From contig JAFALY010000035.1 in assembly GCA_019233975.1 (NCBI GenBank), forward strand, positions 1-64,000: a stretch of DNA of 64,000 nucleotides, written 5' to 3'. The number at the start of each line of letters is the position of its first letter. Position 1 is the stretch's first letter. This DNA comes from Alphaproteobacteria bacterium (GTDB lineage: Bacteria; Pseudomonadota; Alphaproteobacteria; UBA9219). The notes under the pieces were generated by a model that searched no databases, was not told where the DNA came from, and was given only the letters and a program-made list of their open reading frames with translations. This document shows, in pieces, positions 28,667-37,482 of this stretch. A program made the translations under genes and the position numbers.

Positions 28667-29227
28667 TTAGGACGATAAATGCCTTAAAAGACGACGAACG
28701 CCACTGAAACGTCTTCCTTTTGGCATCATGGCGTAGCTATGGGCAACGACACCATCGGCTATAAAATTATCGCCGCCTTCGATATCCAAATTATACACTT
28801 GTTGCGGCCCAAGATCGTCGGTGCCCGTGACAACAGAAGGCGTTAATCTACCGTCCTGCCAAACCATTAAAACGTCACCTTTTTGGAGCTCACTGACCTC
28901 TCTCCATACTTTTTTCTTACCTTGCTGGACCAGAACAGTATGTGTGCCCGTGGCCTCGATAGCGCCATGTTGATGAGAGACTTTGGTGAGCGCCATCGGC
29001 CCTTCGCTGACCCGAAGCTCTTTAACAGTGTGTGCCAGCAGTTGCCCACTCGCTTTGTCCCAAGAATAGAGAATCTCATCTTTTTTGAGATCAGAGATCC
29101 GCTTTGAGCCATCTGGAGTTAAAATCGACGTCGCTGCAGAGAAGCAGCTGCTGTAGTTGTAACCATTTCGTCCCGGATAATAGGCGCCAGTCTGGTCATT
29201 GGGGGACGGCAAATTAATAATACCCAT
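28667..29227 (-). CDS. Stand-alone Hint-domain (intein/hedgehog-like) protein
   Basis: The protein of 186 residues is almost entirely one Hint domain. The catalytic Cys is at residue 28 (SSCFSAATSILTPDG). The block-B T-x-x-H is in GAIEATGTHTVLVQQG, and the C-terminal block is NFIADGVVAHSYAMM. Hint domains perform N-S acyl shifts that drive self-splicing or cleavage. Here the C-terminal Asn usual in splicing inteins is replaced (AHSY), which favours cleavage or N-terminal reaction only. The N-extein equivalent is 27 residues with no signal peptide; the C-extension is short and Arg-rich. Base composition is more AT-rich than in the flanking genes, hinting at acquisition. No clear ribosome binding site was found. 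Confidence 0.75.
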   Translation of the reverse strand: MGIINLPSPNDQTGAYYPGRNGYNYSSCFSAATSILTPDGSKRISDLKKDEILYSWDKASGQLLAHTVKELRVSEGPMALTKVSHQHGAIEATGTHTVLVQQGKKKVWREVSELQKGDVLMVWQDGRLTPSVVTGTDDLGPQQVYNLDIEGGDNFIADGVVAHSYAMMPKGRRFSGVRRLLRHLSS

Positions 29228-32901: not shown

Positions 32902-33582
32902 ATGTCAAAACCCGAAGCCGCTGCGAAAACAGAATTGACGGCTGCCAAAATCGACCCTGTTGCCACGGTCATGCATCGCAATGCGTTTTACCGCGACGGC
33001 TATCGCATGCTGCTGCGCATTACAGTCGTGCAATTGTTTGTCATCGGCCTGTTGATCGCCAGCCTTGTGGGCATGGTGCTGACGGTTGAAACGCGGCAGG
33101 TTTATTTTGCCACGACATCCGATGGACGCATTATCCCGATTATTCCGTTGTCCGAACCCTATCGTGAAAATTCGGAAGTCGTCACCTGGGCCGCTGAGAC
33201 GGCCAAGAACGTAATGCGCTTTGACTATATTGATTATAAGGCGCGGCTGCAGCAGGTTTCGCCCAGTTTTACACCCGGTGGATGGGAGAGTTTTAACAAG
33301 GCGCTGAAGGATTCGAACCTGCTGGATGCGTTGCAGGCACGCAAACTGGTGCTTACCATGACCGTCAATGCGGCGCCGGAAATCATCAATTCGGGGCTTC
33401 ATAACGGCATTTACACCTGGGATCTGCGCATGCCCGTAACCATCAAGATGGACGGTGCAGAACCGCCGCAACCCATTAACGCCAGCCTGCTGTTGCGTGT
33501 CGTGCGCGTTTCGAATTTGCAAAACCCGGATGGCATCAGTATCGAACAATGGGTGACCTTGACCGGTCAGAACAACCGCTGA
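32902..33582 (+). CDS. Dot/Icm type IVB secretion protein DotI/IcmL, first copy
   Basis: The protein of 226 residues is a bitopic inner-membrane protein. It has a cytoplasmic head, a transmembrane helix at about residues 40-62 (QLFVIGLLIASLVGMVL) and a periplasmic DotI/IcmL (TraM) domain with VVTWAAETAKNVMRFDYIDY, FTPGGWESF and YTWDLRMPV. DotI forms a ring at the inner membrane. In Legionella the gene before icmL is icmM (dotJ), a shortened paralogue. Here that position is held by a copy with an intact periplasmic domain. AAGGAAAG precedes the ATG. The stop overlaps the next start by one base. Confidence 0.88.
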   Translation: MSKPEAAAKTELTAAKIDPVATVMHRNAFYRDGYRMLLRITVVQLFVIGLLIASLVGMVLTVETRQVYFATTSDGRIIPIIPLSEPYRENSEVVTWAAETAKNVMRFDYIDYKARLQQVSPSFTPGGWESFNKALKDSNLLDALQARKLVLTMTVNAAPEIINSGLHNGIYTWDLRMPVTIKMDGAEPPQPINASLLLRVVRVSNLQNPDGISIEQWVTLTGQNNR

Positions 33583-34364
33583 TGGCTGAAAATCCGCAAC
33601 CGGCTTCTTCTACCAAAGGCACATCAAAGCCAAAACCCAAAGCCGCGCGTAAACCCTTTTTACAGACGGGCCGCGTGGGGAAGTTGGCTAAAACGCCTTT
33701 GATGAGAGTGTTGTTGACGCGCGATTTCTTCTCGCTCGAGCCCGTTGCCGTTGATTTTCTACCCTATGAGGAAGCCGAGGCAGCACGCACCTTCCGCGTT
33801 ATTCGCGGTGTGTCGCGTAATGCCATTATCATTGCAGCCTTGACGATATTGATGGTCTTTCTTATCCCCTTCACGCGCCCGCTGACCGTCTATTACGCGT
33901 TGGCGCCTGCGGGCAAGGTGACGCAGATGATCCCCCTGCCGCAACCGAATCTGACGAATGCCGCTGTGACCGGCTGGGCCGCAGAAAGCGTGACAGAGAT
34001 ACTTTCTATCGGCTTTGGTGACTTTGATGAAAAACTGGTGCGGCAGAAAAAACGCTTCACCCGCGATGGTTGGGAGGCGTTTGTTAAAAGCTTCCTGAAA
34101 GAAGGAGTCGACCAGTCGTTCCGCCGGCATCAGCTGGTCCTGACCACTGTGCCGACGGATACCCCCCTTGTCGTATCGCAGGGCGTCAATGCCGACCATG
34201 TTTATGAATGGAAGGTACAAATGCCCATCATCATGAACTACACAACCAACAATAACGTTTCCAAGCCGGTAAACGGGAATATCGAGTTAACTATTGTGCG
34301 CGTTCCCTATGAGCAGAGCGCCAGCGGCTTGGCGATAGATGTGTGGCATCAGTCACGCCATTAA
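33582..34364 (+). CDS. Dot/Icm type IVB secretion protein DotI/IcmL, second copy
   Basis: The protein of 260 residues has a Lys/Pro-rich cytoplasmic head, a transmembrane helix at about 80-100, and a periplasmic IcmL domain (TGWAAESVTEILSIGFGDF, FTRDGWEAFVKSFL, YEWKVQMPIIMNY). It aligns over its full length with the preceding gene, so the pair arose by duplication. Its head is longer. The one-base overlap (TGATG) with the first copy indicates coupled translation and suggests a hetero-oligomer like Legionella DotI-DotJ. Confidence 0.9.
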   Translation: MAENPQPASSTKGTSKPKPKAARKPFLQTGRVGKLAKTPLMRVLLTRDFFSLEPVAVDFLPYEEAEAARTFRVIRGVSRNAIIIAALTILMVFLIPFTRPLTVYYALAPAGKVTQMIPLPQPNLTNAAVTGWAAESVTEILSIGFGDFDEKLVRQKKRFTRDGWEAFVKSFLKEGVDQSFRRHQLVLTTVPTDTPLVVSQGVNADHVYEWKVQMPIIMNYTTNNNVSKPVNGNIELTIVRVPYEQSASGLAIDVWHQSRH

Positions 34365-34496
34365 GGAAATCTCTGCCGGGGGGCATTCTTTCCTCGACAG
34401 GCATGGTTTGGGGTTTGTAAACTGTCTCTTAACTTTGATTTGGTGAAAAGCTAGGCTGCCTCAGCGCATTTCGCCTGACTGATTCGAGGGGTTGTT

Positions 34497-35831
34497 TTGT
34501 CTACTATCCGCTTGTACTTCCAACGGAACATGGCTCTCTGCCTTACGCTGGCCTCCGGGCTTGCTCTGGCGACGGCCCCCGCCCTTGCGCGCAGCGCTTC
34601 TGACACCACGTCGGACAGCTTTTTTTCCGCGAGTGATTTGACCTATGCCAAGTCGGGCACATCGGCCCATGGCAGTGCGCAACCGACGCAAGGTGACGGT
34701 GGTGCTATGGGAACGCTCAGCGTACCCGCAACGACAGCGGCTTCACCAGACGTGGCGGCCCCAGCGGTAACACCGCCGACCGTGACACCACCAACGGCAA
34801 CAGCAAAGCCTGTCTCGAGCGTGGCGGCCAAGGTCGCGGCGTCAGGGCAGACGGCAGCGGTCACCCCAACGGTGACGCCCGCGACTTCCGCGCCGACATC
34901 AACCGCCAACGGTATTTCCATTCCTGAACCACCGCCCGCCACGGCGCTGACCAACGATGCGACGCAACTGGCAGCGCAAGCTGAACAAGCCGCCCTGCAG
35001 GCGCAGGCGGAAGCTGAAGCTTCGCAAGCTAAACAGGAAGAAGATCACAATCGCAAATCTTTCAAAAAGGCGGAAATGGGATTGTTGCCCATGTCGCCCG
35101 ATCAGGTGCGCGGCTTTATGCATCGCCTTGAAGATACGCAGGAAGCGGCGCAACCGCCTTCAACCGGTCAACCGCATGGTAAGGTGCGTATCACGACCAT
35201 TTCGCTTGATCCCGGTAGCGATCCGCCACAGGTCAGTCTGGCCGCGGGCTACGTGACCACAATTAATATGCTCGACTCCACGGGCGAGCCCTGGCCCATA
35301 CTGGATGTGGGTGTCGGTGGTAATTTCGAGGTATCGCCGACGCAGGCTGGTTCGCATGTCGTGCGTATTATGCCACTGACGCGCTATGGTGCCGGTAACC
35401 TGTCCATTCTCCTGAAGGACCTGCCGACCCCCATCATTTTCCGCTTGTCGGCGGCGACCAACAATGTTGACTTGCGACTGGATGCGCGCATTCCCAAATT
35501 CGGCCCGAATGCCAAGATGCCGCTCGTGAACAGGCCGCGCCTGGAAGCGGGCGATGATGCGCTCATGAACATCCTGCAAAACAACCCGCCTGCCGAAGCG
35601 CACCGCATGAAGGTCAGTGGCATTGATGCGCGCAGTTCTGCCTGGGCAGTGGGTGAACATGTTTATGTGCGGACGCCGCTCACGCTTTTGTCGCCATCCT
35701 GGAACGCCAGTGTGGCGTCTGCGGACGGCATGACCGTTTATGATATCGGCAATGCGCCTATTCTCTTGATGTCCGATAATGGCGCGGTCGTGCGTGCGCA
35801 TCTTTCGATGGATACAGATCATGACAAATAA
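34497..35831 (+). CDS. Dot/Icm core-complex protein DotH/IcmK
   Basis: The product of 444 residues has a signal peptide (cleavage near ATAPALARS), then about 110 residues of Ala/Pro/Thr-rich linker. A coiled Gln/Glu-rich helix and the conserved C-terminal half follow, with AAGYVTTINMLDSTGEPWPI, VRIMPLTRYGAGNLSILL and PIIFRLSA. These are hallmarks of DotH/IcmK (TraN), an outer-membrane core component and VirB9 analogue. The start is TTG 34497 with GAGGGG six bases before it; the next Met (34530) would spoil the signal peptide. It overlaps dotG by 11 bases. Confidence 0.88.
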   Translation: MSTIRLYFQRNMALCLTLASGLALATAPALARSASDTTSDSFFSASDLTYAKSGTSAHGSAQPTQGDGGAMGTLSVPATTAASPDVAAPAVTPPTVTPPTATAKPVSSVAAKVAASGQTAAVTPTVTPATSAPTSTANGISIPEPPPATALTNDATQLAAQAEQAALQAQAEAEASQAKQEEDHNRKSFKKAEMGLLPMSPDQVRGFMHRLEDTQEAAQPPSTGQPHGKVRITTISLDPGSDPPQVSLAAGYVTTINMLDSTGEPWPILDVGVGGNFEVSPTQAGSHVVRIMPLTRYGAGNLSILLKDLPTPIIFRLSAATNNVDLRLDARIPKFGPNAKMPLVNRPRLEAGDDALMNILQNNPPAEAHRMKVSGIDARSSAWAVGEHVYVRTPLTLLSPSWNASVASADGMTVYDIGNAPILLMSDNGAVVRAHLSMDTDHDK

Positions 35832-37482
35832 TTTTGATGATTTCGAAGGCAATGAGCATTTGGGTGAAGAACCCACCGCCGTTCCCGCGAAAAAGGGATT
35901 GGTCGAAAGCCTTGGCCACGCCTGGCGTTCGCAGCCGGTATTTAAACTATTTGTGCTGATGGTTGCTGTTGGTGCTGTTGCCGCCGTGTCCATCAGCTTG
36001 ATGTCGGGCGACCGCAAGACACAAAGCTCGGCCAATGTCATCAAGCCGCCGGATTTGAACGAAGCGCCTGGGGGCAAAAGCTCGCCCTACATGAAGGAGC
36101 AGACCGAACTTGCCAACAAGCAGCGTGTCGCTGAAGCGATCAAGAGCGGCGGCAGTGCGGTCCCAACCCCTGTGGGTGCGACGGGAGGGCCCGGTGATGC
36201 GCTCGGGGGCACCAAAGAAGACGATATGCTGAATGAATTGAAGGCTGAGATTGCCAGCATGAACAAGCAGATTCAGGACACAAAACGTGCGGCCCCGCCG
36301 CCCATTACGTCGGTTGCCGTTCAAGGCGTGCCGCAGCAGGGCCAACCCGGCCAGCCTGAGCGCTTTGATGATTCTCTGGCGCAGGCCATGCAACGCCAGA
36401 TGTCGCAGCTGATGGATTCATGGACGGTTCACGGCATTAAATCCGTGACGGTCAGTAAGTCAGGTCATGGTGATGGTGGTGGTGATGAAATTGTAGATGC
36501 CAATGCATCCGGCACCGGCGTTTCAACTGTTCGGCATAACCCGACGGAAACCAGCGCAGGGTCTTCTGCCGCAGGTGGCTCTTCGGTCGGTAATTCGCAG
36601 GCGCGCACAATCGTTCCGGCGGGCACGGTCAGCTATGCACAATTACTGACCGAAGCAAATTCTGACGTGCCGGGTCCGATTATGGTGCAGATTGTCTCTG
36701 GCCCGCTGGCGGGTGCGCGTGCGATCGGCAGTTTTGAGGTTGCGAACGGCAACGCCGACTATCTGGTTCTGGACTTCAAGCTCGCCAATTATAAAGGGCA
36801 TGATTATCGTCTGAACGCAATCGCGCTTGATCCGGATACGACCTTGGGCGGCATGGCGACAGAGGTTGATCAACGTTACTTTATGCGTGTTGTACTGCCG
36901 GCGGCATCGGGCTTTCTGCAGGGGTTTGCCTCCGCGCTCGGGCAGGGTGACTCGAACACAACGATCAGTGGTACGACCACCATCGTACAACAATCCAGCA
37001 AGGGATATAAGCAGGGCCTTTACTCCGGGCTTGGCGGTGCTGCACAGACAGCCGGACAGTTCTTCCAGAATCAGGCCAACCAGACGCGACCTTTGGTGCG
37101 CGTTGCCGCAGGTACGCCGCTTGGTTTGTTCTTTGTCGATACGGTTGCCGAAGATTCCTATTACCAGTCTGATGCGCAGATCGCGGCAGATTGCGCCAAG
37201 CAGGGCATGGCCGTTGGCCAGATTACAGCCAACCAGACCGGTTGCGTACAAAAGACAACGAGTATTAACGGCATTCCCGGTTTTGGTGGCGTGAATGGTT
37301 TGGCGGGGAATCCCTACGCTCAGCTCAATGGCCTCGCTGGCGGCGGCGTGCCCACGACGGGGGCTGGCGCTGTACCCTATCCGAACTACGCTACATCGGG
37401 GCAAACCGGCGTGACCAACCCTCTCGCATTATCTGGCGGCACAACCGCTTATCCGGGCAGCACGATCTATTATACGCACTAA
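35821..37482 (+). CDS. Dot/Icm core-complex protein DotG/IcmE (VirB10-like)
   Basis: The protein of 553 residues has a cytoplasmic N-terminus, one transmembrane helix at about 38-60 (FKLFVLMVAVGAVAAVS) and a periplasmic linker. The C-terminal VirB10/TrbI-like beta barrel contains IVPAGTVSYAQLLTEANSD, GPIMVQIVSGPLAGARAIG and PLVRVAAGTPLGLFFVDTV. DotG spans both membranes and forms the channel wall. Legionella DotG is about twice as long because of pentapeptide-like repeats; those repeats are absent, as in IncI TraO. It follows dotH with an 11-base overlap. Confidence 0.92.
   Translation: MTNNFDDFEGNEHLGEEPTAVPAKKGLVESLGHAWRSQPVFKLFVLMVAVGAVAAVSISLMSGDRKTQSSANVIKPPDLNEAPGGKSSPYMKEQTELANKQRVAEAIKSGGSAVPTPVGATGGPGDALGGTKEDDMLNELKAEIASMNKQIQDTKRAAPPPITSVAVQGVPQQGQPGQPERFDDSLAQAMQRQMSQLMDSWTVHGIKSVTVSKSGHGDGGGDEIVDANASGTGVSTVRHNPTETSAGSSAAGGSSVGNSQARTIVPAGTVSYAQLLTEANSDVPGPIMVQIVSGPLAGARAIGSFEVANGNADYLVLDFKLANYKGHDYRLNAIALDPDTTLGGMATEVDQRYFMRVVLPAASGFLQGFASALGQGDSNTTISGTTTIVQQSSKGYKQGLYSGLGGAAQTAGQFFQNQANQTRPLVRVAAGTPLGLFFVDTVAEDSYYQSDAQIAADCAKQGMAVGQITANQTGCVQKTTSINGIPGFGGVNGLAGNPYAQLNGLAGGGVPTTGAGAVPYPNYATSGQTGVTNPLALSGGTTAYPGSTIYYTH

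What the first reader, a model, noticed from the sequence alone, without database searches (positions are those of the whole stretch)
28667..29227. Free-standing Hint domain with a Cys nucleophile but no splicing Asn
The whole protein is a Hint domain with short flanks. Such domains usually sit inside larger secreted proteins, where they release a toxin. Alone, AT-richer than its neighbours, and without a C-terminal Asn, it may be a remnant of a polymorphic toxin or a new trans-acting cleavage module.
Basis: partly seen in the sequence, partly recalled or inferred. Interest (0 to 1): 0.58.

Follow-up and report, generated by a model that had tools for sequence, protein, structure and literature searches.

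The report
Orphan intein-like domain missing its asparagine
A small bacterial gene encodes little more than one protein-splicing-type (Hint) domain that has kept the parts needed to cut at its front end but lost the residue needed to splice, so it looks like a recently acquired, stranded relative of phage inteins rather than a new system.

Summary
In detail: window 28667-29227 (minus) is an intact 186-aa ORF consisting of a Hint domain (residues 28-164) with a 27-aa head and a 22-aa basic tail. Cys28, Thr93-x-x-His96 and the penultimate His163 are kept; the last residue is Ser164, not Asn. A model built with relatives is confident over the Hint core (116 of 186 residues at pLDDT 90 or more) and matches inteins, Hedgehog and BIL domains about equally (Z about 19-21). 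Pfam calls it Intein_splicing, above cut-off; toxin-type PT-HINT is below. It is an orphan: no orthologue in 33 genomes of its order or 385 sampled in its class; head and tail match nothing convincing; codon usage is unadapted. The tree puts it beside inteins in a huge phage's T4-like portal protein (97/92), but other placings are not rejected. Best reading: a recently acquired orphan mini-intein or BIL-type domain that can form the thioester at Cys28 and release its own head, but cannot splice or cut at its C-terminus. Toxin-remnant and trans-acting ideas have little positive support. The tail's resemblance to Hedgehog's sterol region is chance level. Real, but a modest member of a known kind.

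The parts
28667..29227 (-). orphan Hint ORF, 186 aa, ATG start
   Evidence: Pfam Intein_splicing above cut-off
28736..29146 (-). Hint domain, residues 28-164 (Cys28 to Ser164)
   Evidence: alignment A1, model with pLDDT mostly over 90, Z about 20 to inteins, Hedgehog and BIL
29144..29146 (-). Cys28, predicted nucleophile of the N-S acyl shift
   Evidence: invariant in 24 of 24 rows
28940..28951 (-). block B motif Thr93-Gly-Thr-His96 (TxxH)
   Evidence: Thr and His invariant in 24 of 24 rows; TxxH role in Hedgehog from passages of PMC9163320
28736..28741 (-). His163-Ser164: penultimate His kept, terminal Asn absent
29147..29227 (-). 27-aa head, predicted disordered, would be released on cleavage before Cys28
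   Evidence: pLDDT under 50 for residues 1-24; only chance-level matches elsewhere
28670..28735 (-). 22-aa tail, net charge +6, predicted mostly disordered
   Evidence: only chance-level matches elsewhere

Best explanation
It is an orphan mini-intein or BIL-type Hint domain, most likely brought in recently by horizontal transfer (a phage is the best guess for the source), and now encoded alone. Shown: a complete Hint fold by prediction, Cys28, TxxH and penultimate His kept, terminal Asn absent, no host protein around it. Inferred: the Ser27-Cys28 bond rearranges to a thioester, which water or a small thiol resolves, freeing the 27-aa head; the C-terminal side is not cut because there is no Asn to cyclise; no splicing. 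Whether the cell gains anything is not shown; a stranded module with leftover chemistry is likelier than a selected function.
For: Intein_splicing above cut-off and PT-HINT below; intein_Cterm above cut-off. Cys28, Thr93, His96 invariant in 24 of 24 rows. Model core mostly pLDDT over 90 with disordered ends; Z 20.7 to Ssp DnaB mini-intein 6fre, 20.5 to Hedgehog 1at0, 19.2 to BIL 2lwy. Mean log RSCU -0.161 against +0.076 to +0.355 in 15 neighbours, near a uniform-synonym null of -0.240, sd 0.056. No orthologue: in 144 genomes all 21 matches in 11 other genomes are 35% identical or less; order and class searches agree. Sister to two Hint domains in a T4-like portal protein of phage LR756508, support 97/92. 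Short Hint-only viral proteins exist, e.g. 143 aa in Lactobacillus phage P1 and 144 aa in Herelleviridae sp. cttEB8.
Against: The AU test does not reject grouping it with the order's C-terminal Hint domains (p 0.136) or with the tail-protein Hints (p 0.131). No phage gene or mobile element was recognised beside it in the 10 neighbours tested. An intact catalytic core with no internal stop also fits a selected function. No cleavage was measured. The -1 residue is Ser rather than Gly as in Hedgehog, which may slow the first step (inference).
Confidence: 0.55

Rival explanations
1. Remnant of a polymorphic toxin or other secreted Hint-bearing protein: the delivery part and the toxin part were lost and the releasing Hint domain survives.
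For: Its best hits by sequence among relatives are C-terminal Hints of larger, probably secreted proteins. In another alphaproteobacterium (G108) short Hint ORFs sit by longer Hint-bearing genes, which looks like such debris. In one search, 4 of 56 Hint matches lie in open frames of 200 aa or less (this one included), and 3 of those 4 lack His-Asn.
Against: PT-HINT below cut-off; no remnant peptide of a host protein in the gaps on either side, only matches of 6-20 residues at E 0.2 or more; no toxin or immunity gene recognised next door; tree prefers portal inteins.
Confidence: 0.25
2. A selected stand-alone self-cleaving protein: the 27-aa head is the product, released or passed on from the thioester, with the basic tail as a membrane or partner anchor.
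For: Intact core and flanks of defined length; tail is +6 with an amphipathic 11-mer whose moment 200 of 5000 shuffles of the tail reach; Hedgehog shows that a Hint without the Asn can transfer its N-terminal part to an alcohol (passages of PMC9163320).
Against: Head and tail recur nowhere beyond chance; unadapted codons; no orthologue; tail against the Hedgehog sterol region scores at chance, 2198 of 5000 shuffles reach it for Drosophila Hh and 3809 of 5000 for Shh.
Confidence: 0.12
3. A trans-acting cleavage module that works on another protein of the cell.
For: Only that it stands alone.
Against: Known Hint reactions are on their own chain (established knowledge, recalled); the only other Hint found in the genome lies in a different 311-aa protein; no other protein shares its head.
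Confidence: 0.03

Closest known systems
Class 1 mini-inteins (Pfam Intein_splicing; e.g. Ssp DnaB, Mtu RecA; portal-protein inteins of phage LR756508)
   Same: Cys1, TxxH, penultimate His, block F/G sequence, fold
   Different: no host protein, no terminal Asn, no Cys/Ser/Thr at +1 (Tyr165), so splicing is not expected
Bacterial intein-like (BIL) domains
   Same: fold (2lwy, Z 19.2); lacks the +1 nucleophile, as BILs do (passages of PMC7664689)
   Different: BILs keep the His-Asn end (recalled) and sit inside larger proteins (passages of PMC5874633); here neither holds
Hedgehog autoprocessing (Hog) domain
   Same: fold (1at0, Z 20.5); N-terminal cleavage without Asn; His-Ser-Tyr-Ala (163-166) lies where Hedgehog has Ser-Cys-Tyr-Ala (inferred from range ends)
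   Different: tail of 22 aa shows no similarity to the sterol recognition region beyond chance; -1 is Ser, not Gly; no signalling domain
PT-HINT of polymorphic toxins
   Same: same superfamily
   Different: match below the curated cut-off, no toxin domain downstream
Other short Hint-only ORFs
   Same: free-standing Hint ORFs in an alphaproteobacterium (L133 177 aa, L135 144 aa) and viral proteins of 143-172 aa
   Different: heads and tails differ; the tree does not join the three short ones tested with this one

Membership tests
Hint superfamily | Hint fold with block A nucleophile and block B TxxH | tested here: met
Intein (class 1) | Cys/Ser at position 1 and TxxH | tested here: met
   Cys28, Thr93, His96
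Intein (class 1) | terminal His-Asn and +1 Cys/Ser/Thr | tested here: not met
   His163-Ser164, +1 Tyr165
Intein (class 1) | inserted in a host protein | tested here: not met
   head and tail of 27 and 22 aa without homologues beyond chance
BIL domain | no +1 nucleophile | tested here: met
   Tyr165 at +1
BIL domain | placed inside a larger bacterial protein | tested here: not met
   whole ORF is 186 aa with 12 in-frame codons before it
Hog domain | C-terminal sterol or adduct recognition region | tested here: inconclusive
   tail similarity at chance level; 22 aa is too short for a firm test
Hog domain | general base at the position of Hedgehog Asp303 | not tested
   no residue-level structural alignment was printed
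PT-HINT / polymorphic toxin | PT-HINT match at curated cut-off, toxin domain after it | tested here: not met
   15.2 bits against 27.7; tail of 22 aa only
any of these | self-cleavage activity | not testable with these tools
   needs expression

The most novel reading that the evidence does not exclude
A minimal bacterial counterpart of Hedgehog processing: a stand-alone Hint that activates its own 27-aa N-terminal peptide as a thioester and passes it to an alcohol, amine or lipid, steered by the basic tail.
Probability: 0.05. Interest if true: 0.75.

Novelty: new member of a known kind. Interest (0 to 1): 0.27.

Why it matters
If it cleaves, it is a very small natural Hint precursor and a convenient model of N-terminal-only Hint chemistry. 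If it is debris, it is a clean snapshot of an intein-like element stranded without a host gene. The order also has a family of C-terminal Hints with no His-Asn in large proteins, which may be the more interesting lead.

Tried and rejected
Polymorphic-toxin remnant: looked for host fragments in the two flanking gaps (28 peptides against 4293 stop-to-stop frames of fetched loci; only matches of 6-20 residues at E 0.2 or more) and for toxin neighbours: nothing. Insertion into a conserved locus: SodB was found in 28 of 33 genomes and the monooxygenase in 30 of 33, but besides the own genome the places listed put the two on one contig only in G004, about 13 kb apart, and in G029, whose genome is two contigs and where they are over 700 kb apart, so there is no empty site to compare. 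Split intein: rejected, blocks A, B, F and G are present in one chain. Hedgehog-like sterol region in the tail: looked striking by eye (Ser-Tyr-Ala, Arg-Leu-Leu), rejected by shuffles. PHROG phrog_21587 (2.2e-6): it covers the Hint part and rings in 3 of 39 genomes, so it says only 'Hint'. Defence systems: no PADLOC match. Genome contigs and viral contigs with P0001 alone gave no relative; with A2 viral contigs gave none and genome contigs 6 loci. Single-sequence structure: useless, pLDDT 36.9. Plasmids: 6 records, about 31% identity or less, annotated polymorphic-toxin HINT or TIGR04388 proteins; phages: 10 records. Literature: searches listed no paper that by title or abstract start deals with free-standing bacterial Hint proteins; I read only passages of PMC7664689, PMC5874633, PMC3482391, PMC2362128 and PMC9163320.

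Full report
What is there. The ORF at 28667-29227 (minus) is 186 codons, ATG to stop, with 12 in-frame codons before the ATG. Pfam scores it as Intein_splicing at 36.7 bits (cut-off 35.8), Hint_2 and PT-HINT being below cut-off; NCBIfam's intein_Cterm passes its cut-off while intein_Nterm does not. In an alignment of 24 Hint domains Cys28, Thr93 and His96 are invariant. The chain ends the domain with His163-Ser164 followed by Tyr165, where class 1 inteins have His-Asn and a nucleophile (established knowledge).

Fold. Without relatives the prediction fails (pLDDT 36.9). With ten relatives (A5) the mean is 80.5, 116 of 186 residues reach 90, and the low parts are the head (1-24) and the tail (167-181, 184-186). 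Foldseek's best PDB matches are BIL2 of Tetrahymena and mini-inteins. VIA-align gives Z 20.7 for 6fre, 20.5 for Hedgehog 1at0, 20.4 for the RecA mini-intein 2in0 and 19.2 for the BIL 2lwy. These lie within 1.5 of each other, so the fold does not say which branch of the superfamily it belongs to. In the viral library 173 matches reach E 0.001, among them short proteins of 143-172 aa that are little more than a Hint.

Relatives. In 144 related genomes, 12 have a match: two places in the own genome and 21 in 11 others, none over 35% identical. Twelve of the 21 are C-terminal Hints of proteins in six genomes of the order whose ends lack His-Asn; six are Hints near the N-terminus of a tail protein, ending His-Asn-Gly; three are others. 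A profile search of 33 genomes of the order found 21 matches in 11 genomes, and one of 385 genomes sampled from the class found 56 matches in 33 genomes. Of those 56, four lie in open frames of 200 aa or less; three of the four, this one included, lack His-Asn. Short Asn-less Hint ORFs therefore recur, but rarely, and the tree does not join the three short ones tested with this one. The other Hint in the own genome is the end of a 311-aa protein on another contig.

Origin. The ORF's codon usage (mean log RSCU -0.161) lies outside 15 neighbours (0.076 to 0.355) and nearer to random synonyms (-0.240, sd 0.056). SodB and the monooxygenase on either side are widespread in the order, which fits an insertion between resident genes, but no relative has the two adjacent in the places listed, so there is no empty site. 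The tree of 49 domains joins it to two Hints inside the portal protein of phage LR756508 (97/92), a protein that Pfam identifies as T4-like portal with Intein_splicing matches. The end branches are 1.2-1.4 changes per column and AU tests do not reject two other placings (p 0.136 and 0.131). Phage descent is a lead, not a result.

Head and tail. The head occurs once in the own genome. In 144 genomes it has one further match at E 0.088, and the tail two at E 0.036 and 0.054; all are chance level for that many genomes. Neither has a match in 50,697 phage records. The tail is +6 with an amphipathic 11-mer reached by 200 of 5000 shuffles. A resemblance to Hedgehog after its Ser-Cys-Tyr-Ala motif does not survive shuffling: 2198 of 5000 for the tail, and 655 of 5000 for residues 157-186, against Drosophila Hh; 3809 and 921 of 5000 against Sonic hedgehog.

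Mechanism. Established for Hedgehog: Cys forms a thioester with the residue before it with help from TxxH, and cholesterol resolves it; inteins share the first step (passages of PMC9163320). BILs lack the +1 nucleophile and mainly cleave (passages of PMC7664689). By analogy this protein should make the thioester at Ser27-Cys28 and lose its head by hydrolysis or thiolysis; without Asn the C-terminal step should not run. All of this is inferred.

Verdict. A genuine but modest orphan. Function in the cell is unproven, and debris with leftover chemistry is the likeliest reading. Toxin remnant remains possible (0.25); a selected peptide-releasing protein is a long shot (0.12).

Noticed in passing
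L007, L008, L009, L016, L019, L021 (relatives); L152-L156 (IMG/VR contigs): A Hint ending His-Asn-Gly sits near the N-terminus of a phage or gene-transfer-agent-like tail protein (Phage-tail_3 and Rcc01698_C by Pfam in L154); four copies in genome G006.
   Followed up: partly
L003-L006, L011, L012, L014, L015, L017, L020, L022, L023: In six genomes of the order, proteins with open frames of about 350 to over 900 aa, many rich in Cys, end in a Hint domain that lacks His-Asn, i.e. Hedgehog-like in layout; five such genes in genome G003.
   Followed up: partly
L002:518-1453 (own genome contig C26): 311-aa Cys-rich protein, signal-like start by eye, with a C-terminal Hint (His-Asn-Lys), next to a Peptidase_S74 chaperone-like gene at L002:33-440.
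   Followed up: partly
L084:3822-7982: Portal protein of uncultured phage LR756508 (T4-like by Pfam) carries two Hint domains of mini-intein size and a third, longer intein-like insert.
   Followed up: partly
window 32902-37482: Type IVB secretion (Dot/Icm-like) genes: DotI/IcmL, DotH/IcmK and a TrbI-like gene by Pfam.
   Followed up: no
L134, L135 (genome G108): Several Hint-bearing ORFs, some truncated or free-standing, on one contig of another alphaproteobacterium, as if produced by rearrangement.
   Followed up: no
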